NCBI GenBank assembly: GCA_002686675.1
Contig: NYYF01000013.1
Span: 22,160 to 45,173, forward strand
From: Fidelibacterota bacterium
Lineage (GTDB): Bacteria; Marinisomatota; Marinisomatia; Marinisomatales; UBA8229
DNA length: 23,014 bases
Direction: 5' to 3'
In this document: piece by piece, positions 1,737-23,014 of the stretch
How the letters are laid out: each line of letters starts with the position of its first letter
Numbering within the stretch: the stretch's first letter is position 1
Position numbers and translations under genes: made by a program
Notes under the pieces: model-generated
Told to the model about the DNA's origin: nothing
Databases searched by the model: none
What the model saw: only the letters and a program-made list of their open reading frames with translations

Positions 1737-3194
1737 ATGAAATGTTTTTCATTCATTTTATTTTTCACAACAACATTGTTTGGAAATGAGATTTTGTCTA
1801 ATTATGATAATAGGTTTATCGCAAAGTTTAGTTATTTAAATTTGATTTATGGTAATAATATATTTGACAAAGAAAAGATTAATAACACTAAGGATGAACT
1901 AAAAACTATAGCAATATTAAATTTTCAATCAAAAGGAGTATCTGAAGAAGAAGCTGCTACATTAACACATCGTTTTTCTACTGAAGTATTTCGTACTAAT
2001 GCTGTGAGGTTAGTTGAAAGAGAATTAATGGTTGAGATTCTAAAAGAACAGGGATTTCAACAATCGGGTTGTGTGTCAAATGAATGTGTTGTTGAGATAG
2101 GTGCCCTGCTTGGTGTGCAACAAATGATTAGTGGTTCTATTGGAAGAGTTGGTGATACTTATACAATTGATATAGAATTAATTTCTGTCCAAACTGGTGA
2201 AATTATAAATTCACATAATTTAAAGTATAAAGGTCAAATTGATGGCTTAATTATAGAAATTGAAATTCTTGTATGGGAGTTTTTTAATTTAAAAACACCT
2301 GAAAAACTTATAAAGGAAAGAAATAAACAATCAAAAATATCTAAAGAGATTGATACAATAATTATTAAAGATAGAGTTGAATTTCAATCTTTTAATGGTA
2401 AACCCCTACTTCGTTCTTTGGTATTGCCTGGATGGGGGCAGATGTATAATAAATCTCCTAGGTGGAAGACTGCACTTTTTGCCGGCATCGAGGTAGTGGG
2501 AATTGTTGGGATAGTGCAATTAAATAAAAAAGCTGAAAATTTGCGCATAGAATTTGAGTCTTTTGCCGATGAACATTGGGACTTTACCAGATGGGTCAGT
2601 AACACTCCATTAACAAAGTCGCAATGGCTTAATAATTTGAATATTCCGGATATTTGGAACTATAATGAAGGTGACACAACCATGTATGATGTGATCATTG
2701 ATGGAACACATCAGCTGGATATTTTATATAATGGACAAATTAAATCTTCAGATTGTTTTAATGATGATAACACAGATAATAATTGTATTGAGCTTGATCA
2801 AATGCAAGTAATCAGAGACCTTCATTTTTATGAAAACATTGGGAAATACGATCAGTTCGTGGGAGGATGGGATGACTTGGTTGATGCTACAAATGATAGT
2901 TCAATCTGGTGGATAAAAGAAAAACATACTGAAGATGGTACTGAAATCCTCCTCATGACAAAAAACAAGGAAAAATATTTGGATATGCGCTATAAAAGCA
3001 ATACATACCTTAAAATGGCAACCTACGCTGTTAGCGCAGTTATGTTTAATCATGTCATAAGTGCTCTGGAAGCCGTATGGACGTCTCATTCAGATGCTAG
3101 AAAGAAGAAAATATATGAGACCTCAATTGGATTGTTTTATAATAAAAACACTCAATATGGTATTGGTGGATTATCTCTTGGAATCAGTTGGTAG
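1737..3194 (+). CDS. Secreted CsgG/FlgO-like domain protein with C-terminal DUF5683-like region
   Basis: A 485-residue protein with a hydrophobic signal peptide (residues 1-17, MKCFSFILFFTTTLFGN). Residues ~55-185 match the FlgO/CsgG-like pattern seen in many FCB-type proteins: TIAILNFQSKGVSEEEA, a VERELMVEILKEQGFQQSGC motif, a second Cys (SNECVVEIG), then GSIGRVGDTYTIDIELI. From residue ~222 the LRSLVLPGWGQMYNKSPRWK motif followed by a hydrophobic helix is the start of a DUF5683-like domain, and a second hydrophobic stretch lies near residues 425-445. A GAAGGA-like ribosome site precedes the ATG. Function is unknown; the FlgO-like fold is linked to outer-membrane or periplasmic assembly. Its place between a barrel gene and bamD suggests an envelope role. 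The first ~650 bases look even more AT-rich than neighbouring genes. Confidence 0.7.
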   Translation: MKCFSFILFFTTTLFGNEILSNYDNRFIAKFSYLNLIYGNNIFDKEKINNTKDELKTIAILNFQSKGVSEEEAATLTHRFSTEVFRTNAVRLVERELMVEILKEQGFQQSGCVSNECVVEIGALLGVQQMISGSIGRVGDTYTIDIELISVQTGEIINSHNLKYKGQIDGLIIEIEILVWEFFNLKTPEKLIKERNKQSKISKEIDTIIIKDRVEFQSFNGKPLLRSLVLPGWGQMYNKSPRWKTALFAGIEVVGIVGIVQLNKKAENLRIEFESFADEHWDFTRWVSNTPLTKSQWLNNLNIPDIWNYNEGDTTMYDVIIDGTHQLDILYNGQIKSSDCFNDDNTDNNCIELDQMQVIRDLHFYENIGKYDQFVGGWDDLVDATNDSSIWWIKEKHTEDGTEILLMTKNKEKYLDMRYKSNTYLKMATYAVSAVMFNHVISALEAVWTSHSDARKKKIYETSIGLFYNKNTQYGIGGLSLGISW

Positions 3195-7087: not shown

Positions 7088-8119
7088 ATGAAAGAACAAG
7101 ATTCAAAAGGGCTAAGTGAAAGGGAACACCTTGTTCTCATGACAACAATTGAAGATTATATTGAAGTAAATCACCCCGTTGGTTCCAATTTCCTAAAAAA
7201 ACGTCATTTATTTTCTTTCAGTCCAGCAACAATCCGGAACACTTTAGCATGTCTAGAATCAAAAGGAATGCTTACTCATACGCATACCTCTTCTGGGCGA
7301 ATACCAACAGATGAAGGTTACAGATATTATGTTGATAAATTGTCAGACAGCGAAAAAATGGAAGGTAAATTGGATGAGGATACTTTTAAGAACCTTATTC
7401 AGATGACCTCAAATATTGATGATTTGATGCAGGCAACTGCAATTTTGTTATCTAAAGTAAGCCGATTGTTTGGTTTCGTTATGATTTCTGAGGTGAATAA
7501 AAGTATTTTAACAGATATTGAACTTATTTCTCTTTCTTCTGACCGTGTTATGGTGGTTCTTGCCATGAAGACAGGATTAATTCGTTCAATTGTACTTGAA
7601 CTGAAAATGGTTGTTAATCAGAATGAATTAGATAGTATCACTGCAATTTTGAAAGAATGTTTACTTGGTCTTTCGTTAGATGAAATTCAGAAGACAATCC
7701 ATTTTCGTGTGTGTGGATCAGATGTATTTGATCATGAAATTATTCAGGTGTTGATTAATGAACCAGCCTCACATTTCAGTCTCGCAAGTAATACATTGAT
7801 TTATACCTCATCCTTCAGTGAACTTTTAAATTATCCTGAATTTCAGGAAGTCACGATACTCCAGAAGACGATTAAAGCTCTAGAGAAAAGGAACATTAAA
7901 CAGTTTATTAAATCTAATGTGGGTTCGAAAAAAAAATATACATTTATTGGACACGAGACAAATAACGATCTCATGGATCACTTTTCAATTTTGACTTCCC
8001 GATTTAGTAGTGATTTAGTGACAGGTCAATTAGCTGTTTTAGGTCCTACTCGTTTACGGTATCAATTTGTGAAACGTATACTTGAAGATTTTTCGAAGGT
8101 GTTACCGAATGTCTGTTAA
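7088..8119 (+). CDS. hrcA: Heat-inducible transcription repressor HrcA
   Basis: A 343-residue protein, the usual HrcA length. The N-terminal winged helix (~residues 1-80) shows the family signature: GSNFLKKRHLFSFSPATIRN, a LESKGMLTHTHTSSGRIPT wing and DEGYRYYVD. The C-terminal half carries the GAF-like/insertion region ending in GHETNNDLMDHFSILTSRFS and GQLAVLGPTRLRY, also typical. HrcA represses chaperone operons by binding CIRCE and is tuned by GroEL availability. It leads an hrcA-grpE-dnaJ operon; grpE starts inside its last codons. Confidence 0.95.
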   Translation: MKEQDSKGLSEREHLVLMTTIEDYIEVNHPVGSNFLKKRHLFSFSPATIRNTLACLESKGMLTHTHTSSGRIPTDEGYRYYVDKLSDSEKMEGKLDEDTFKNLIQMTSNIDDLMQATAILLSKVSRLFGFVMISEVNKSILTDIELISLSSDRVMVVLAMKTGLIRSIVLELKMVVNQNELDSITAILKECLLGLSLDEIQKTIHFRVCGSDVFDHEIIQVLINEPASHFSLASNTLIYTSSFSELLNYPEFQEVTILQKTIKALEKRNIKQFIKSNVGSKKKYTFIGHETNNDLMDHFSILTSRFSSDLVTGQLAVLGPTRLRYQFVKRILEDFSKVLPNVC

Positions 8120-8663
8120 AAAACAGGAAACAGTTGATTCGTCTGGAAAGAAGATCGAACAAAAGAAAAAAAAGACTTCCCCCCCAAAGGGTTCTAAAGA
8201 AAAACAAAAAATCAAGGATTTAAACCAACAGTTGGTTCAAAATGAGGATCGACATCTTCGTCTTATTGCAGAATTTGATAATTACCGACGCCGAAAAAAG
8301 AAAGAGATAACCCAAATGCTGCAGTATGAAGGAAAGGCAATATTTGAAGATTTATTACCCATCATTGATGATTTGGATCGATTAGCTGAGGCATTCAATA
8401 ATCATAAGAAATCTGATGATAGATCGTCTATTAAGGAAGGAGTTCGATTAATTCAAGCAAAAATGGGAAAGTTTTTAGAAGATTGGAAGATAGAGCCCTA
8501 TGGTACACCAGGTGAAATATTGGATTTAGATGTTCATGATGCGATTATGACTCAGAAAGAAAAGGGGAAGAAGGAAGATGAAATCTTGCAAGTTTTTCAA
8601 AAGGGTTATACTTACAAAGATAAGGTAGTCCGCCATGCAAAAGTGATTGTCAACAAAAAATGA
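8109..8663 (+). CDS. grpE: Nucleotide exchange factor GrpE
   Basis: A 184-residue co-chaperone that releases ADP from DnaK. I chose ATG 8109 over an in-frame TTG at 8082 because AAGGTG sits at proper distance before 8109 and the first residues ([15 protein letters not shown]) give the usual charged, low-complexity GrpE tail. Family motifs: a helical stalk with [15 protein letters not shown], then [13 protein letters not shown], and the beta-wing segments near DLDVHDAIM and [19 protein letters not shown]. It overlaps hrcA by 11 bases and dnaJ by 4 (ATGA), so translation is coupled. No dnaK lies in the window. Confidence 0.95.
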
Positions 8664-9781
8664 AAGATTTGTATGAGATATTAGGTGTGGATAACACTGC
8701 ATCAGCTGAGGAAATAAAGCGGGCTTATCGAAAAATTGCTATGAAATACCATCCGGACAAAAACCCCGGGAATAAAGAGGCAGAACAGCAATTTAAAGAA
8801 TCAGCTGAAGCTTACTCTGTATTGAGTGATAAAGAGAAACGAGGGCAGTATGATCAGTTTGGTCATGCCGGCGTAGGCATGGGCCAGCAGGGCGGCGGGT
8901 TCGGAGGTGGTGTACATATGTCCATGGATGATATTTTTAGTCAATTCAGTGATATTTTTGGGGGACATAATCCTTTTCAGGATATTTTTGGAGGTTCAAC
9001 AAGACAAAGCAGTCATGTGCGAAAAGCAAAGGACCTGCGTGTTTCAATTGAGGTAGATTTTTCTGATATATTGCATGGAACTGAAAAAAAAATCCGAATC
9101 AAACGGTTTGAAATTTGCACGACTTGTGACGGCAATGGGGCTAAGCCAGGTACGACACCTTCACAGTGTAGGCATTGTGGAGGGAGTGGTCAAGTACAAA
9201 GAATGTCACAATCCTTTTTCGGGCAATCTGTTGTTGTAAGTGATTGCCCCGTTTGTCGTGGAGAGGGGGTTTTAAATGAACATCCGTGTCGTGATTGCAG
9301 TGGTCGGGGAATTATCCGTAAAACAGCAACTATTAAAATTTCAGTTCCTAAAGGAGTTTCCACCGGGAATTATATGACCTTGAGCAAAGAAGGGAATAAA
9401 GGCGGAAAAGGTATTGAACCGGGGGACCTCGTTGTTTATTTTGAAGAGAAAGAACATCCCTTTTTTATTCGGCATGGGCTTGATATTTTTTTAGAAGCGC
9501 AGGTGCCAATTTTTTGGGCTGTATTAGGAGGAACTATTGACGTACCTACAATTGATGGTAAAGCCAGCCTAAAAATACCAGCTGGTATTCAATCTGGACA
9601 GATTCTTCGAATGCGCGGAAAAGGATTTCCAAAATTAAGAGGAGGCCAGAAAGGAGATCAGCTTGTGAGGATACAGGTTTCAACACCAAAATCCCTAAGT
9701 AAAAAAGAAAAGGATTTGTTTTCAGAATTAGCTAGTTTAAACGGGAAGTTGAAACCTAAGTTTAATAAAGTTGATTTTTAG
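8660..9781 (+). CDS. dnaJ: Chaperone protein DnaJ
   Basis: A 373-residue type I Hsp40. The J domain (~1-70) has HPD at residues 31-33; a Gly/Phe-rich linker follows ([14 protein letters not shown], then [15 protein letters not shown]). The zinc-binding region (~150-220) has four CxxCxGxG-type repeats: [24 protein letters not shown] and CRDCSGRG. The C-terminal substrate-binding domain includes [20 protein letters not shown] and [19 protein letters not shown]. It delivers clients to DnaK and stimulates its ATPase. All key residues are intact. The gene overlaps grpE by 4 bases, and its TAG stop shares a base with the next GTG start. Confidence 0.97.
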
Positions 9782-10230
9782 TGAAACTCTTTACTTCTCA
9801 GGAAAAAACTGTTTTTCGTTTTTTGATTGGAACTATGCTTGCCGGACTCATTGTTGGGGCTATTAGACATAATTATTTTGATAACAAACGAGACAATATT
9901 GTCACTCATGAAAGAAAAGCATCCTTTTTAAGGGACAGTCAATTACCTCTTGATACGGATGCAGTAAGCGTGCTTCAAGAAATTGTTGCAGATGGTCAAG
10001 AAGAAGCATTGAGAGAAGGCAGTATTAAGAAAAAAATTGAAATCATTAATGTAAATACTGCAAAGAAAGATGAATTAATTATTTTACCAAATGTTGGTCC
10101 AGTTACAGCAGAACGTATTATTCGATTTCGAGAAGATTTTGGAGTGTTTAAATCAATTGACGATTTAACAAGAGTAAAAGGAATAGGTCCAAAAACGTTG
10201 GATAAATTGAGGAAATATGTAACAATTTAA
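9781..10230 (+). CDS. ComEA-like membrane-anchored helix-hairpin-helix DNA-binding protein
   Basis: A 149-residue protein with one N-terminal membrane helix (~residues 12-30, RFLIGTMLAGLIVGA), a charged linker, and a C-terminal tandem helix-hairpin-helix domain (~85-149): INVNTAKKDELIILPNVGP, then the RIIRFREDFGVFKSIDDL segment and VKGIGPKTLDKL. This is the ComEA layout, in which the outside-facing HhH pair binds double-stranded DNA during natural transformation. The start is GTG, overlapping the dnaJ stop by one base. Generic HhH anchored proteins look alike, so I give no symbol. DprA and a pilus-assembly-like gene in the same window support a DNA-uptake role. Confidence 0.8.
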   Translation: MKLFTSQEKTVFRFLIGTMLAGLIVGAIRHNYFDNKRDNIVTHERKASFLRDSQLPLDTDAVSVLQEIVADGQEEALREGSIKKKIEIINVNTAKKDELIILPNVGPVTAERIIRFREDFGVFKSIDDLTRVKGIGPKTLDKLRKYVTI

Positions 10231-17531: not shown

Positions 17532-17622
17532 GGAGAGGTGGCCGAGCTGGCTGAAGGCGCTCGCCTGCTAAGTGAGTGTGGGGCTCTAAACTCCACCGAG
17601 GGTTCGAATCCCTCCCTCTCCG
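17532..17622 (+). tRNA. tRNA-Ser (anticodon GCU)
   Basis: Acceptor arm GGAGAGG (17532-17538) pairs with CCTCTCC (17615-17621), discriminator G at 17622 as usual for serine. The anticodon stem-loop CTCGC-CTGCTAA-GTGAG gives anticodon GCT, reading AGC/AGU. A long class II variable arm lies before the T arm GAGGG-TTCGAAT-CCCTC. CCA is not encoded. The gene stands alone between dprA and the cyclase remnant, and could serve as an integration site. Confidence 0.97.
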
Positions 17623-18023
17623 CATAATATTTGGATAAAAAGGACCACAATAGACAGGAAAAATTTTGTTTTTTTTAGCAGGGTGATTTTATCTAATACT
17701 GTCACCTGATACACCCACCCGCAAGTTTGAAGCAATCATGTTTACAGATATTATCGGTCATCCCGGATTGTCGGCAAAAGATGCAAACAAAGTTCTTAAG
17801 CTGCTTGATAAACAAAAGTAGCTTTTAATACCAATCTTAGAAGAGTGAAAGAAGGAGAGTTATTATCACCTTTTTCCACGTTCTTCATTCCCTATACGTT
17901 TACACCCTTTTTATTGATTTGCTTAAAGACCGGATAGTAATATCTGCCACTTCATGAAAGAATTAATTTTCCTTTTAAATTCACTATTCCTTTTTGATAC
18001 GTATAATACGTAGAAGCAAAAAT
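17623..18023 (+). other. Intergenic region: T-rich tract, cyclase remnant, possible promoter
   Basis: No intact gene is visible on either strand. A run GTTTTTTTT at about 17669-17676 follows the tRNA, but I see no solid stem before it. The middle holds a decayed cyclase start, listed separately. Just before the giant gene is a perfect TATAAT (18002-18007); no good -35 lies 16-18 bases upstream. AGAAG at 18012-18016 is a weak ribosome site 7 bases before ATG 18024. Confidence 0.5.
17699..17890 (+). pseudogene. Decayed N-terminal fragment of a class III adenylate/guanylate cyclase
   Basis: From 17702 the frame reads SPDTPTRKFEAIMFTDIIGH and then a GLSAKDANKVLKLLDKQK segment before TAG at 17819. 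This matches the usual start of bacterial class III cyclases, where RKLAAIMFTDIVGYT-like sequence carries the first metal-binding Asp, followed by a KDE...ALxLLDKxR helix. After the stop the same frame continues LLIPILEE, the next expected piece, then hits TGA at 17846. Another frame then gives VKEGELLSPFS, resembling the KEIGDGLLLSF motif with a deletion. The codon before SPDT is CTG, perhaps a lost ATG. The rest of the catalytic domain is absent. The match is from memory of the family, so confidence is moderate. Confidence 0.55.
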
Positions 18024-21000
18024 ATGACTACTATGCTGCAACGGATCCCCATCCAATTCACTGTGCTTTTGATGGGCACTCTTTTCTTTTATAATCCTCT
18101 TTATGGACAATGTGGCGCAGGGTATGTGGAGATTGATGAAGAATGTTACTGGAAAAAAGATATATTTTTTCTTCAAGGTTTTATTGATGGCAGCAATGAT
18201 TTTTTGGATATAGATATGGATGATAATGAAGACGGAATAATTTCGCCATTGGAATTGGGAGTTCAAACCTGGAGCGGAGAAGGAAGATTAACATCTTTAT
18301 TTTGTTCTAACAGGGGGCTAACCGGTGATATTCCGGAAGCAATCATCAACCTTGATAAACTATACTGGTTGTTATTATCAGATAATCAGATAACAGGTGC
18401 AATACCGGAGAACATCGGGAATCTGGTAAATTTAATTAAGTTGGATTTGCAGTGGAACGAGATTGAAGGGAATATTCCCAAGAGTATTGAAAAATTAAGT
18501 ATGCTTCAGCACTTAGATTTGTCTTTCAATCAATTGACAGGCTCAATACCAGATGGTATTGGGAATCTTACAAATTTAAAAAAATTATTATTAAGTGATA
18601 ATCAATTGACAGGTTCTATACCGGATGGTATTGGAAATTTTACCAATGTAGAAAAATTATTATTAAATACCAATCAGTTAGAAGGCATAATTCCTAATAG
18701 TCTTTGTGAATTAAATCTGAATTGGGGTGCAAGGTCCAGTGTGAACTTGGCAAATAACAATTTTTGTCCTCAGTATCCAGTTTGTGTGGAATTCGTCATG
18801 GGAGATCAGGATACTTCAGCATGTAAAGATTGGAGAGATATGCAGGCCGCTCTTCTCATAGCCGAAGCGGAAACAATAGCCGAAGCGGAAACAATAGCCG
18901 AAGCGGAAGCAAAAGAAACCGGGACGAAACAGACTATGGCATCAGCGTTGGATGTAGCAGAAAAAGCAGAACAATTGACGAAGTTTAATGAGATGAGAAG
19001 AGAAGAAGCAGAACAAGTGGCAGATGAAGCAAGAATTGTCAAAGAAGTAGCAGAGCAAGCAGCAGCAGTAGCAGAGCAAGCAGCAGCAGAAACAAAGGCG
19101 GCAGGAGGAAGAGCTAGAGAAGAAGCAGAAGAAAAAGCATTTGCAGCAGAGGCGGTAGCAGAAGAAGCAGAACAAGCAGCAGCAGATAAGATGGCAGCAG
19201 CAGAAGAAGCAAAACAAGCTGCAGCAGAAGTAGTAGCAAAACAAGCTGCAGCAGAAAAGACAGCAGAAGAAGTAGAAGAAGAGGGGGATGATGCAAAGGA
19301 TGCAAAAGAAGCGGCAGAGCGAGCAATAGCAGCAGCAAAAGCGGTAGCGGAAAGTGTAAGAGAAGAAGCAGAACAAGCAGCATCAGAAGCGGCAGAATCA
19401 AAAGAAGCAGCAGAAGAAGCAGAACAAGCAGCAATAGAAGCAGCAGAATCAAAAGAAGCAGCAGCAGTATCAAAAGCAGCAGCAGAAAAGGCAGAGTTGG
19501 CAGCAGAAGCAGTGGCAGATAAAACAGAACAAGCAGCAGTAGCAGCAGAACAAACAGCAGCAGAAGCGAAAGAAGTAGCGGATGATGCGGAAAAAGTAAG
19601 AGAAGCAGCAGAAGAAGAAGAATTACTAACGGCAGCGGCAGCAGAAAAAGCAAGAGCAAAAGCAGCAAAAGCAGTAGCAGAAGCGGTTACAGAAGAAGAA
19701 AAACAAGCAGCAGCAGAAGAAGCACAAGAAGCAGCTAAAGCGAAAGAAGTAGCGGATGATGCGGAAAAAGCAAGAGAAGCAGCAGAAGAAAAAGCATTGG
19801 AAGCAGTAGCAGTAGCGGAAGAAACAGAACAAGTAGCAGTAGAAGCAGAACAAACAGCTTCAGAAGCGAAAGAACTGGCGGATAATGCAGAGAAAGCAAG
19901 AGTAGAAGCAGAACAAGCAGAATTGGTAGCAGAAGAAGAAGCAGAACAAACAGCTGCAGAAGCAAAAGAACTGGCGGATGATGCAGAGAAAGAGAGAGAA
20001 GAAGCAGAACAAATGGCAGTAGAAGCGAAAAAAGCGGCGGATGATGCAGAAGAAGCAATAGAAGCAGCAGAAGCAGTAGCATGGGCAGCATCAGGAGCAG
20101 TTTGGGCACCAGAAGAAGCGATAACAGAAGACGAAACAGAAGTAGAAGAAGTAGGGGATGATGCAGAAAAATTAAGAGATGCACCGAAAAGAAAAGCTAC
20201 AAAAGCAGCGGATGATACAGAAAAAACAAGAGCAGCAACGCCGCCGCATCAGGAAAAAATTAGTGCATTAGAATCAAATACTTCCAGACTCTCAGATGCA
20301 GAAATAGATGAATTAGTCGAAGACGGATTATTAACTGAAGAGCAAGGTAAAGATGCCAAAGCATTTCGCAATTCAAGAGGAACGGAAGTAGCAGAAGTTA
20401 TAAAACAAAATCAGGCAGATCAACAAGCTGCAGTAGAAAAAGCTGCAGTTGAAGAAGTTAAACAAGCAGAATCGGCAGCGGCAAAAGCGGAAGAAGTGGC
20501 AGATGGTGCAGAAAAAGTAAGAAAAGAAGCAAAGCAGACAGCAACAGAAGCAGAAACGGTAGCGGATGAAGCAAGAGAAACAGCAGAGCAGAAAGCATTG
20601 GTAGCAGAATCGGAAGCAAAGAATGCAAGGGAGGTAGCAAAAGCAGCAGATGCAGAAGCAGAAGCAGTTGCAGCAGACGCGAGAAAACAAGCAGAATTAG
20701 TGGCAGCACCATCAGCAGCGATAGCAGAACAAGCAGAAGAAGCATCATCATCATCAGCATTGGCAGCATTAGCGGCAGAAGAATTGGCGGATGATGCAGA
20801 GAAAGCAAGAAAAGAAGCAGACCTAGAAGCCTTGAAAGCAGCAGCAGCAGCAGAAAATACAAGAGAAGAAGCAGAAGGAGCAGAGCAAGCAGAAAAAGAA
20901 AGAGAGGTAGTAGCAGAAGCAGAATTGACAGCAGCAAAAGCGGAAGAAGTAGCGGATGATGCAGAGAAGGCAAGAAAAGAAGCAAAACAAGCAGAATTAG

Positions 21001-23014
21001 CAGCAGAAGCAGCAGCAGAAGCGGCAAGAAAAGAAGCAGAAGAAAAAGCATTGGCAGCAGAAGCGGTCGCAAAAAAAGCAAGGAAACAAGCAAAAGAAGC
21101 AGACCTAGCGGCAGAAGCGGTCGCAAAAAAAGCAAGGGAAAAAGCAAAACAAGTAGCAGCACCTCCAGCAGCGATAGCGGAAGAAGCAAAACAAGCAGCA
21201 GCATTAGCAGAATTGGCAGCATTAGCAGCGGAAAAAATTGCGGAAAATGCAAAGAAAGAAATGAAAGAAGTCGAACAAAAAGCATTGGAAGCAACAGCCG
21301 TAGCAAAAAAAGCAAGAAAAGAAGCAGAAGAAAAAGCATTGGCAGTAGCGGTTGCAAAAAAAGAAAGGGAAGAAGCCAAACAAAAAGCATTGGCAGCAGC
21401 GGCAGAAAAATTGACCATGCCGCAAACTATTTCTATCTTACCCGACGTTGACAATATTCCTATTAAATATGAAACATTTAGGGAAGATGATATTCGGTTC
21501 CTCCAGGACTTGATTGACAACAACCTTGACACGCTCATTGTAGAAATGGATAAAAATGGTGATGGAATACTTGGACCACTCGAATTAGGGATTCAAAATT
21601 GGAAGAATGGAAGATTAACTTCATTTGATCTTGCGAATGTGGGATTAACCGGAGATATTCCTGAAAGCATTGGCGGATTATCCCAACTAAAAAGGCTGGC
21701 ATTATACTCAAATCAACTGACTGGAGAAATCCCGGAAAGTATAGGGAATTTGGTTCATCTGGAGAAATTATATTTAAACGATAATCAATTAACCGGAAGA
21801 ATTCCTGAAAGCATTGGAAATCTATCTTCATTGAAAAGATTATATTTGAATTCAAACCAATTGTCCGAAGATATTCCCGAAAGTATTGGAGAATTGGCAA
21901 GCCTTGAGAGATTAATTATTTTTGATAATAAATTAGTCGGTCCAATTCCCAAAAGTATTGGAAACTTAATTGATCTTGAAAAGTTATTACTGTATTCAAA
22001 CCAACTGACTGATAGCATCCCGGCGGATATTGGTAACTTATTCAATCTGGAATATTTACAATTAAATAATAATAATTTTTTGGGAACAATTCCAGATGCC
22101 ATTTGTGACCTAACTATTGATTGGTCTTCCCCAGCCCGCTTTAATTTTTCCAATAATCAATTGTGTCCGTCATATCCAACCTGTATAGAAACTGTAGTAG
22201 GCTTTCAGGATACAACCAATTGTACGAGATGTGACAGTGGATTTGTGTATGTAAATAGCGATTGTCACTGGGGACAAGATATTGAATTTCTTCAGGAATT
22301 GATTGATAACGCCCAAACAGGCTTGAAACCACCACCAAAATATTTATCTCCGGTTAAATTAGGAGAACAGACTTGGAAAGATGGTCGCCTTACAAGTTTA
22401 TGCAGTTCTAGTTCTATCTCGCCGAAAGACGGGTGTGTTGTAGACTACGAATTGAGCGGCCATATTCCGGAAAGTATTGGTGAAGTTTCAGAACTAACCA
22501 GCCTTGTTTTACCGTTAAACGATTTGAATGGTAGAATCCCTCGAGCGATTGGGAATCTTAAAAAACTCAAAGTTTTATCATTGGAATGGAACGAACTTTC
22601 GGGAAAAATACCAAAGAGAATTGGTGATTTAGTAAGCCTTGAAAGATTGGAATTACAGTCAAATCAATTTACTGGAGTTATTCCAGAGAGTATTGGAAAT
22701 CTTGTAGATCTTACTTTATTAAATTTACGTGATAATCAACTCATCGGAGAGATTCCTGAAACTATTTGTAATTTGGAAAAACTGACGTTTACACTGGAAG
22801 CGGCAGCTGAAGATGCGGTGGCATCAGAAGCATCAGAAGCAGTTGCAACGGCAGCAGTGGAAGAAGTGGTGGAGGAGTCAAAAAGAGCAAAAGTAGAAGC
22901 AGAAAAAGCAAGTTCAGGAGCACCAGGACCGCACCAGGAAAAAATTGCTGCATTAGAATCAAATACGTCCAGACTTTCAAATGCAGAAATTGATGAATTA
23001 GTCGAAGACGGATT
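18024..23014 (+). CDS. Giant secreted EF-hand / leucine-rich-repeat / coiled-coil modular protein (3' partial)
   Basis: The frame is open from ATG 18024 to the window end, at least 1663 codons with no stop. Residues 1-28 are a Sec signal peptide (hydrophobic FTVLLMGTLFFYNPLYG). Module 1: Cys-bracketed cap (C30, C41), EF-hand loop D66-E77, six 24-residue plant-type LRRs (88-228), and a Cys-rich C-cap (C228, CPQYPVC, C267). Then an Ala/Glu-rich predicted coiled coil (~273-1129), interrupted at 742-786 by a short conserved module. Module 2: EF-hand D1176-E1187, seven LRRs (1197-1361), C-cap CPSYPTC. Module 3: Cys cap C1403/C1414, degenerate EF-hand, five LRRs (1455-1582). A short coiled coil and a second copy of the conserved module end the window. 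It probably acts outside the cell or on the surface as a calcium-dependent adhesin or scaffold; that is inference. No C-terminal anchor is visible because the end is missing. Confidence 0.9.
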   Translation, partial: MTTMLQRIPIQFTVLLMGTLFFYNPLYGQCGAGYVEIDEECYWKKDIFFLQGFIDGSNDFLDIDMDDNEDGIISPLELGVQTWSGEGRLTSLFCSNRGLTGDIPEAIINLDKLYWLLLSDNQITGAIPENIGNLVNLIKLDLQWNEIEGNIPKSIEKLSMLQHLDLSFNQLTGSIPDGIGNLTNLKKLLLSDNQLTGSIPDGIGNFTNVEKLLLNTNQLEGIIPNSLCELNLNWGARSSVNLANNNFCPQYPVCVEFVMGDQDTSACKDWRDMQAALLIAEAETIAEAETIAEAEAKETGTKQTMASALDVAEKAEQLTKFNEMRREEAEQVADEARIVKEVAEQAAAVAEQAAAETKAAGGRAREEAEEKAFAAEAVAEEAEQAAADKMAAAEEAKQAAAEVVAKQAAAEKTAEEVEEEGDDAKDAKEAAERAIAAAKAVAESVREEAEQAASEAAESKEAAEEAEQAAIEAAESKEAAAVSKAAAEKAELAAEAVADKTEQAAVAAEQTAAEAKEVADDAEKVREAAEEEELLTAAAAEKARAKAAKAVAEAVTEEEKQAAAEEAQEAAKAKEVADDAEKAREAAEEKALEAVAVAEETEQVAVEAEQTASEAKELADNAEKARVEAEQAELVAEEEAEQTAAEAKELADDAEKEREEAEQMAVEAKKAADDAEEAIEAAEAVAWAASGAVWAPEEAITEDETEVEEVGDDAEKLRDAPKRKATKAADDTEKTRAATPPHQEKISALESNTSRLSDAEIDELVEDGLLTEEQGKDAKAFRNSRGTEVAEVIKQNQADQQAAVEKAAVEEVKQAESAAAKAEEVADGAEKVRKEAKQTATEAETVADEARETAEQKALVAESEAKNAREVAKAADAEAEAVAADARKQAELVAAPSAAIAEQAEEASSSSALAALAAEELADDAEKARKEADLEALKAAAAAENTREEAEGAEQAEKEREVVAEAELTAAKAEEVADDAEKARKEAKQAELAAEAAAEAARKEAEEKALAAEAVAKKARKQAKEADLAAEAVAKKAREKAKQVAAPPAAIAEEAKQAAALAELAALAAEKIAENAKKEMKEVEQKALEATAVAKKARKEAEEKALAVAVAKKEREEAKQKALAAAAEKLTMPQTISILPDVDNIPIKYETFREDDIRFLQDLIDNNLDTLIVEMDKNGDGILGPLELGIQNWKNGRLTSFDLANVGLTGDIPESIGGLSQLKRLALYSNQLTGEIPESIGNLVHLEKLYLNDNQLTGRIPESIGNLSSLKRLYLNSNQLSEDIPESIGELASLERLIIFDNKLVGPIPKSIGNLIDLEKLLLYSNQLTDSIPADIGNLFNLEYLQLNNNNFLGTIPDAICDLTIDWSSPARFNFSNNQLCPSYPTCIETVVGFQDTTNCTRCDSGFVYVNSDCHWGQDIEFLQELIDNAQTGLKPPPKYLSPVKLGEQTWKDGRLTSLCSSSSISPKDGCVVDYELSGHIPESIGEVSELTSLVLPLNDLNGRIPRAIGNLKKLKVLSLEWNELSGKIPKRIGDLVSLERLELQSNQFTGVIPESIGNLVDLTLLNLRDNQLIGEIPETICNLEKLTFTLEAAAEDAVASEASEAVATAAVEEVVEESKRAKVEAEKASSGAPGPHQEKIAALESNTSRLSNAEIDELVEDG
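18285..18707 (+). repeat. LRR block 1: six plant-type 24-residue leucine-rich repeats
   Basis: Protein residues 88-228. The IP motif recurs with exact 24-residue (72-base) spacing at residues 103, 127, 151, 175, 199 and 223, following the pattern NQLTGxIPxxIGNLxxL. The block ends in a Cys cap at C228. DNA copies are diverged, so the unit is conserved as protein rather than recently amplified. Confidence 0.93.
18858..18911 (+). repeat. Three tandem copies of an 18-base unit
   Basis: The unit ATAGCCGAAGCGGAAACA (Ile-Ala-Glu-Ala-Glu-Thr) occurs at 18858, 18876 and 18894; the third copy differs by one base. It lies at the start of the coiled-coil region and looks like a recent in-frame slippage product. 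Confidence 0.95.
20247..20329 (+). repeat. Conserved 'HQEKI...LVEDG' module, copy 1
   Basis: Residues 742-769 start HQEKISALESNTSR and continue LSDAEIDELVEDGL; the following LTEEQGKDAKAF (770-781) is specific to what can be seen of this copy. About 92% identical at DNA level (76 of 83 bases by eye) to 22932-23014. The DELVEDGLLTEEQ core resembles SHOCT-type short helical domains (LxxGxLTxEEF); that resemblance is tentative. Confidence 0.85.
21057..21137 (+). repeat. 27-base direct repeat, two copies 54 bases apart
   Basis: Identical 27-base segments at 21057-21083 and 21111-21137 encode AEAVAKKAR within a longer near-duplication around ADLAAEAVAKKAR. They sit in the coiled-coil region and indicate recent in-frame duplication. 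Confidence 0.9.
21612..22106 (+). repeat. LRR block 2: seven plant-type 24-residue leucine-rich repeats
   Basis: Protein residues 1197-1361. The residue before xIP recurs at exact 24-residue spacing (1210, 1234, 1258, 1282, 1306, 1330, 1354), with consensus IPESIGNLxxLexLxLxxNQL. It ends with C1361 and a C-cap containing CPSYPTC, closely paralleling the end of block 1. Confidence 0.93.
22386..22769 (+). repeat. LRR block 3: five plant-type leucine-rich repeats
   Basis: Protein residues 1455-1582, with the G-x-IP motif at 1479, 1503, 1527, 1551 and 1575. The first strand carries an extra Cys-flanked loop (C1460 to C1471). The block ends at C1582 and runs straight into a coiled-coil stretch (~1592) without the C-cap seen after blocks 1 and 2. 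Confidence 0.9.
22932..23014 (+). repeat. Conserved 'HQEKI...LVEDG' module, copy 2 (cut by window end)
   Basis: Begins HQEKIAALESNTSR and continues LSNAEIDELVEDG; two residue changes from copy 1 over 27 residues. As with copy 1, it follows a coiled-coil stretch and a Pro-containing hinge (GAPGP here, TPP before copy 1). The window stops within it. Confidence 0.9.

What the first reader, a model, noticed from the sequence alone, without database searches (positions are those of the whole stretch)
18024..23014. Giant secreted protein alternating EF-hand/LRR modules with long alanine-rich coiled coils
The sequence shows a single open frame of over 1660 codons with signal peptide, three LRR modules, about 900 residues of predicted coiled coil and a duplicated short module. 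I know of no named family with this order. Alternating binding solenoids and long stalks would suit an extended surface adhesin or scaffold. The true size is unknown because both the last module and the stop lie beyond the window.
Basis: partly seen in the sequence, partly recalled or inferred. Interest (0 to 1): 0.85.

Follow-up and report, generated by a model that had tools for sequence, protein, structure and literature searches.

The report
LRR-stalk protein with phage-related tail
A large, probably exported protein of uncultured marine Neomarinimicrobiota bacteria alternates plant-type leucine-rich-repeat blocks with long alanine-rich helical stalks, and its close relatives carry near the end a piece related to a phage protein encoded among head-assembly genes, which suggests capture from a phage.

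Summary
In detail: one frame, 18024-23014 (1663 codons, still open), with a signal peptide, three leucine-rich-repeat (LRR) blocks, two Ala/Glu-rich stalks (472 and 333 residues), a third stalk begun, and a ~58-residue module seen twice. Two of three LRR blocks carry an EF-hand-type loop. The gene is real: a complete syntenic orthologue (1400 aa) lies on one contig of a sister species, and dN/dS of LRR segments is 0.16-0.26. The window stops inside a repeat; a near-identical metagenome protein (556 of 583 aligned residues) continues 307 residues to its end, so about 1,970 aa are inferred. That tail holds another module copy, then an 80-90 aa domain 55-56% identical to phage-like proteins whose relatives lie beside portal and prohead-protease genes of T4-like phages, then the LRR cap. 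In a tree the bacterial copies form one clade among phage sequences. No type IX sorting domain was found, although the genus has T9SS genes. Among 245 phylum genomes the module was found in 3 and the phage-related domain in 2, one genus. Most likely an exported multivalent binding scaffold with a captured phage domain; location and ligand are unknown.

The parts
18024..23014 (+). Open reading frame of the modular protein, 1663 codons in the window, 3' end beyond the window
   Evidence: complete orthologue L042 1858-6060
18024..18110 (+). Signal peptide (Sec type, judged by eye: hydrophobic core, LYG|QC; no lipobox)
   Evidence: sequence; like N termini in L042, L044, L045. No signal-peptide predictor was run
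18111..18824 (+). EF-LRR block 1: two-Cys N-cap, EF-type loop, plant-specific-type LRRs, Cys C-cap (7 Cys)
18219..18254 (+). EF-hand-type 12-residue loop DDNEDGIISPLE
   Evidence: motif; no Pfam EF-hand match
18825..20240 (+). Stalk 1: Ala/Glu-rich helical region, 472 residues, no Cys
20241..20414 (+). Short module, copy 1 (58 residues; helical in a low-confidence model of a relative)
   Evidence: in orthologues
20415..21413 (+). Stalk 2: Ala/Glu/Lys-rich helical region, 333 residues, no Cys
21414..22223 (+). EF-LRR block 2 with C-cap (4 Cys)
21549..21584 (+). EF-hand-type 12-residue loop DKNGDGILGPLE
22224..22799 (+). LRR block 3 without EF loop, interrupted before its C-cap (5 Cys)
   Evidence: the cap is continuous in L042
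22800..22922 (+). Start of the stalk 3 that interrupts the cap of LRR block 3
   Evidence: junction against L042
22923..23014 (+). Short module, copy 2, cut by the window end; P0132 and L014 show what follows in close relatives (stalk, another module copy, phage-related domain, LRR C-cap, end)
17532..17623 (+). tRNA-Ser (gct) upstream; with obgE and dprA it marks the conserved left flank of the locus

Best explanation
An exported multivalent binding scaffold. Shown or strongly supported: one continuous gene whose LRR blocks and short module are under purifying selection; Cys-capped plant-type LRR solenoids (two with a calcium-type loop in the N-cap) separated by long Ala/Glu-rich helices of variable length; near the end, in close relatives, a domain related to phage proteins of the T4-like head gene cluster, sitting with a third stalk inside the cap of the last LRR block. 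Inferred: the protein leaves the cytoplasm by Sec; the cap cysteines form disulfides; each LRR block binds a ligand (protein, peptide or glycan) as plant LRR ectodomains do; calcium stabilises two N-caps; the stalks hold the blocks tens of nanometres apart; the short modules and the phage-related domain are helical spacers or oligomerisation pieces recruited for structure, not for phage assembly.
For: Architecture and periodicity; 7, 4 and 5 Cys in LRR blocks 1, 2 and 3 and none in the two long stalks; signal-peptide-like N terminus in the orthologue and in two other EF-LRR proteins (by eye); complete syntenic orthologue on one contig; dN/dS 0.157, 0.26, 0.192 for LRR segments and 0.133 for the module; among solved structures the LRR block is nearest to plant receptor ectodomains (GSO1 E 1.1e-139, FLS2), and an LRR fold is predicted at mean pLDDT 83.6 in the best model; phage-related domain 55-56% identical to P0129/P0130 and found in 35 viral loci; portal, head maturation protease, scaffold and major head protein as neighbours in the nearest phage group; bacterial copies one clade (100/100) within a clade that also holds phage rows (96/90).
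Against: No anchor or T9SS sorting domain found, so surface display is not shown. The phage-related domain is not in the window; it is inferred from relatives. Its dN/dS between L014 and L043 is 0.64 on very few changes (dN 0.024, dS 0.037, 89 codons), so selection on it is unproven. No ligand, expression or localisation data. The other four LRR models had mean pLDDT 64-73, and Foldseek TM-scores (query) among the 50 listed matches are at most 0.46. The C-terminal model has low overall confidence (pLDDT 59.7, pTM 0.35). Periodicity in the 68-residue stalk piece before the last module is not significant (181 of 500 shuffles as strong).
Confidence: 0.55

Rival explanations
1. A periplasmic, wall-spanning protein: the stalks work like a TolA-type spacer and the LRR blocks bind peptidoglycan or envelope proteins; it never reaches the cell surface.
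For: Sec-like signal peptide but no T9SS sorting domain found in a genus with SprA in 4 of 4 genomes and 38, 60, 56 and 48 Por_Secre_tail matches; Ala/Glu/Lys-rich stalks.
Against: Two other EF-LRR proteins of the genus, in L044 and L045, also end, by eye, without such a domain, so its absence may only mean another route; no TolA, OmpA or peptidoglycan-binding domain in the scans.
Confidence: 0.3
2. The stalks and modules are slippage-driven low-complexity expansions that are tolerated rather than used; only the LRR blocks matter.
For: Stalk length and module number differ strongly between species: 472 and 333 residues here against stretches of 120 and 106 in G002, which has 3 tandem modules; the DNA is highly repetitive.
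Against: The short module has dN/dS 0.133, the frame is kept, and both long stalks keep helical periodicity, 0 of 500 shuffles as strong.
Confidence: 0.1
3. The captured domain is an anti-phage decoy or a mark of phage interplay.
For: Its closest relatives are phage or phage-like proteins, the nearest phage group coding them in the head cluster.
Against: The protein has an export signal, whereas phage heads assemble in the cytoplasm; the domain was not found in G002, whose orthologue is complete.
Confidence: 0.04
4. Assembly chimera joining LRR gene, repeat and phage fragment.
For: Assemblies break here: the window end, the end of G001:C59 and the start of G001:C97.
Against: G002:C30 runs through the whole locus; the phage-related domain is fused to module and LRR cap in L043, P0122-P0127 and P0132 and to module tail and cap in L014; P0132 spans from stalk 2 to the C-terminal end.
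Confidence: 0.01

Closest known systems
Plant-specific-type LRR ectodomains (GSO1, FLS2, MIK2, PEPR1) and bacterial LRR proteins, among them named ones of Bacteroidota and KSB1
   Same: LRR repeat class; PDB matches from E 1.1e-139; 5658 proteins at E 0.001 or better among 7955 scored candidates for the LRR part, best 120 listed
   Different: No kinase, Ig or sorting domain found; long Ala-rich stalks, short modules and, in relatives, a phage-related domain in between
T4-type prohead core protein gp68 (by gene position only) and the proteins P0129, P0130 and L060-L071
   Same: The 80-90 residue domain near the C terminus: 55-56% identity to P0129/P0130, 38% to the Melnitz phage protein
   Different: There a protein of about 172-187 residues of its own, coded in the head gene cluster in L060-L071; here a domain in an LRR protein with a signal peptide. 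Homology to gp68 of T4 itself was not tested; P0129 and P0130 lie on contigs of at most 3.3 kb and are phage-like by similarity, not shown to be phage
Other EF-LRR proteins of the same genus (L012, L013, L044, L045, L046)
   Same: The same kind of block: two-Cys N-cap, EF loop (degenerate in places), LRRs, NNxLCPxYPxC..GxQDTxxC-type cap (by eye for L012, L013, L046)
   Different: No Ala-rich stalks or short modules seen; the L046 protein ends in a Por_Secre_tail match (G004:C215:3276-3515)
TolA, M-protein and similar bacterial stalk proteins (recalled)
   Same: Long Ala/Glu/Lys-rich helical stalks
   Different: No shared domain found in the scans; the resemblance is recalled, not tested

Membership tests
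Plant-specific-type LRR | 24-residue repeat LxxLxLxxNxLtGxIPxxIGNL in tandem | tested here: met
   Pfam LRR_1, LRR_8, LRR_14 over cut-off; alignment A2; PDB matches
EF-hand | 12-residue loop D-x-[DNS]-x-[DNSG]-G-x-[ILVM]-x-x-x-E | tested here: met
   2 of 3 LRR blocks; absent in block 3
EF-hand | Pfam EF-hand profile over its cut-off (helix-loop-helix) | tested here: not met
   No EF-hand match for the five window pieces (limit E 1); 12.1 bits against 25.9 in L042
T9SS cargo | C-terminal sorting domain | tested here: not met
   No match in the L042 orthologue and L014 (Pfam; NCBIfam) or P0132 (NCBIfam). The window itself lacks the C terminus
T9SS cargo | T9SS machinery in the organism | tested here: met
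   SprA over cut-off in 4 of 4 genus genomes; the window's own genome is not held
T4-like gp68-position phage protein | Sequence homology of the domain to phage proteins coded beside the prohead protease | tested here: met
   for relatives of the window gene, since the domain lies beyond the window
T4-like gp68-position phage protein | Homology to gp68 of phage T4 itself | not tested
   The name rests on gene order (recalled) and on passages of PMC9958956; the PHROG match, phrog_4187, has no named function
DUF2680 hairpin (short module) | Profile match over cut-off | tested here: inconclusive
   19.6 bits against 25 for the window module, but the database lists PF10925 for P0132
gp68-position phage protein, N-terminal half (short module) | Profile homology of the whole module | tested here: not met
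   hhalign probability 1.3%, 10 columns only, 8 phage rows with Melnitz left out
Coiled coil | Heptad period 3.5 in hydrophobic residues | tested here: inconclusive
   3.54 and 3.58 in the window stalks (0 of 500 shuffles each), 3.54 and 3.5 in G002 (2 and 0 of 500), not significant in P0132 (181 of 500); single helix not excluded

The most novel reading that the evidence does not exclude
A marine bacterial lineage captured a domain from the T4-like phage head gene cluster and put it to work outside the cytoplasm as a structural piece (oligomeriser or spacer) of an exported LRR scaffold, inserted together with a stalk into the cap of an LRR solenoid: phage capsid-assembly material reused in a cell-envelope binding protein.
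Probability: 0.35. Interest if true: 0.72.

Novelty: new variant of a known kind. Interest (0 to 1): 0.55.

Why it matters
It gives a traceable case of how a large, probably exported bacterial protein is built: shared LRR blocks, fast-changing helical stalks, and an insertion at an exact junction that brought in a phage-related domain. It also shows why such genes are badly represented: the window and two held genomes break inside or beside it. If the domain is functional, it is an unusual route by which phage head-cluster genes feed the evolution of bacterial envelope proteins in an uncultured marine phylum.

Tried and rejected
Module as the N-terminal half of the phage protein: the tails look alike, but hhalign gave 1.3% probability over 10 columns; rejected as unproven. 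Module against phage records by tblastn: no match. Viral contigs with the whole window protein or with the single bacterial domain as query: no relative confirmed; P0130 and the alignment A1 were needed. PDB by sequence and by fold for the C-terminal part: nothing credible (best E 0.097, and 0.15). NCBIfam matches to LRR effector models (XopAE and others) lie far below their cut-offs and reflect the LRR only; not a membership. The genome-contig search with the window's last 20 bases found nothing. A protein search with the three modules of the G002 orthologue gave 1 protein, P0132, at E 0.001 or better among 7991 scored candidates of its length range, so no other long protein with the module was found there.

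Paper searches: the phylum with LRR or T9SS gave 0 papers; with adhesin 4, seen as listing only, off topic; architecture words 8, listing only, off topic; capture words 0; gp68/gp67/prohead core 47, of which 10 listed, and of these only passages of PMC9958956 were seen. The library holds open-licence PMC papers only.

Of the 39 viral loci L060-L098 tested for head genes with L064 queries, 12 loci (10 distinct contigs) had them and 27 had none; around the Melnitz match the annotation names no head gene. So the head-cluster position is shown for one phage group only. Within those 10 contigs the protease follows directly in 9; in L071 it lies about 0.9 kb further on.

Full report
Check of the observation. 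The frame from ATG 18024 to the window end is open for 1663 codons. It reads: signal peptide (by eye); EF-LRR block 1 (18111-18824); stalk 1 (18825-20240); short module (20241-20414); stalk 2 (20415-21413); EF-LRR block 2 (21414-22223); LRR block 3 (22224-22799); start of a third stalk; second module copy cut by the window end. Pfam finds only LRR families above cut-off. The EF-hand part is a single 12-residue loop in blocks 1 and 2, none in block 3. A T-poor stalk could stay open by chance, but in stalk 1 the two other forward frames contain 35 and 15 stops in 463 and 462 codons (in stalk 2, 5 and 0 in 323), and LRR blocks continue in frame after both stalks.

The locus and its complete orthologue. 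The window's own genome is not held; the nearest held genome, G001, shares 33% of sampled words. Named records that carry the C-terminal part are 'uncultured Candidatus Marinimicrobia bacterium isolate ERR599051_bin.43' and 'Candidatus Neomarinimicrobiota bacterium isolate UBA8229'. The left flank obgE-dprA-tRNA-Ser is 97% identical in G001, whose contig C59 ends at the place of window position 17888. In G002 one contig (C30, L042) runs from obgE-dprA-tRNA-Ser through a complete 1400-residue orthologue to the downstream genes (a protein without a Pfam match over cut-off, a DUF456 protein, and further on a short-chain dehydrogenase-like protein, this last name recalled); G001:C97, G003:C26 and G004:C23 carry the same downstream DNA. 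Window against G002 gives dN/dS 0.157, 0.26 and 0.192 for the LRR segments and 0.133 for the module. G002 has shorter stalks, three tandem module copies and more repeats in LRR block 3.

Beyond the window. The last 10 bases of the window, inside the repeated module, are the first 10 of G001:C97, which points to assembly breaks in a repeat. A metagenome protein, P0132 (898 aa), matches the window from the end of stalk 2 on (556 identical of 583 aligned residues) and continues 307 residues past the window end, which would make about 1,970 aa. The continuation reads: rest of module, stalk with a GIFLRTLRS... stretch, another module, an 80-90 residue domain, and the LRR cap NNKLCPPYPECIEDFIGEQDTSKCE. 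In G002 the cap of block 3 is continuous; in the window it breaks after TLE (22799), and in L014 it resumes at DDHK, so stalk 3, modules and domain were inserted into the cap (or, less simply, lost in G002).

The phage-related domain. The domain is 55-56% identical to P0129/P0130 and 38% to a protein of the Methylophilales phage Melnitz. P0130 led to 6 viral loci and the alignment A1 to 35. In the nearest group the gene lies directly before the head maturation protease in 9 of 10 contigs, with a portal gene upstream in 8 of 10 (the other two contigs begin too late), and scaffold and major head protein following where the locus reaches that far (PHROGs on L064; tblastn). In the other 27 of 39 loci the L064 queries found no head genes, and around the Melnitz match none is named. 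In T4 the place before the protease is that of gp68 (order recalled), an inner-core protein that is not essential and that gp21 degrades (passages of PMC9958956). In a tree of 40 rows (9 bacterial, 31 phage or phage-like) the bacterial rows are one clade (100/100) within a clade (96/90) that holds P0129, P0130 and the head-cluster group, with other phages outside (midpoint root). Phage to bacterium is the natural direction, because the domain is found in many phage loci but in 2 of 245 genomes of the phylum, both of this genus. Foldseek against viral models gives six matches at E 0.001 or better; the four that bear a name are Caudovirales or Synechococcus phage proteins, but several of the six superpose badly (rmsd up to 25.8). 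The predicted domain is a helix, a beta hairpin and three helices, at pLDDT about 73-87 in residues 171-250, in a model of low overall confidence.

Distribution. The short module is in 3 of 245 genomes of the phylum, all in this genus (3 of 101). G004, also of the genus, shows neither module nor domain, but a contig there begins within about 20 bases of the gene's end, so its copy may be unassembled. The genome-contig scan gave 2 loci and the protein searches. The EF-LRR cap is wider: the C-terminal query found matches in 24 of 101 relatives, outside G001 and G003 nearly always through the cap. So the blocks look like an old stock of the order, and stalks, modules and phage-related domain like the addition of this genus.

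How it works. Shown: modular anatomy, selection on LRR blocks and module, helical periodicity of the two long stalks (0 of 500 shuffles as strong). Inferred: export by Sec, disulfides in the caps, calcium in two N-caps, ligand binding by the LRR blocks, spacing by the stalks. The genus has SprA in 4 of 4 genomes and 38 to 60 Por_Secre_tail matches each, yet no such tail was found in the three C-termini scanned, so the protein may stay in the periplasm or leave by another route. Results against a strong reading: selection on the phage-related domain is undecided (dN/dS 0.64 on few changes), the 68-residue stalk before the last module has no significant periodicity (181 of 500 shuffles), the module is not demonstrably phage-derived, and four of five LRR models had mean pLDDT of only 64-73.

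Novelty. LRR proteins with sorting domains, Ig domains and the like are common. The order LRR-stalk-module-stalk-LRR-LRR with a phage head-cluster-related domain in the last cap was matched by no library scanned, and the paper searches found nothing on it (limited to open-licence PMC papers). I rate it a new variant of a known kind, with the phage capture as its unusual part.

Noticed in passing
window 17687-17818 (+): A 44-residue open stretch between tRNA-Ser and the gene reads like the start of a class III adenylate cyclase (recalled); Pfam gives no match, but DNA like part of it occurs at G003:C100 and G004:C64. Possibly a gene remnant.
   Followed up: partly
P0131 and P0132, stretch GIFLRTLRSVIS...RMGV: A ~30-residue basic stretch lies in the third stalk after the module; its nature is unexplained.
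   Followed up: no
L012 (G001:C231), L046 (G004:C215): The same kind of EF-LRR block is shuffled into a different large protein with beta-helix-like parts (by eye); in L046 it ends in a Por_Secre_tail match.
   Followed up: no
L044 and L045: Proteins with repeated W-and-NG motifs (MORN-like, recalled) lie near three-block EF-LRR proteins in two genomes.
   Followed up: no
L042 368-1465; L016 3127-4220: The dprA region is interrupted in G002 (two pieces of one frame with a stop between) and in G001 (two frames), whereas the window's dprA is continuous; assembly error or broken gene.
   Followed up: no
window 1737-3194: A protein with CsgG, LpoB and DUF5683 matches over cut-off stands before a BamD-like (YfiO) gene.
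   Followed up: no
window 7088-10230: hrcA, grpE-like and dnaJ heat-shock cluster followed by a comEA-like gene; ordinary.
   Followed up: no
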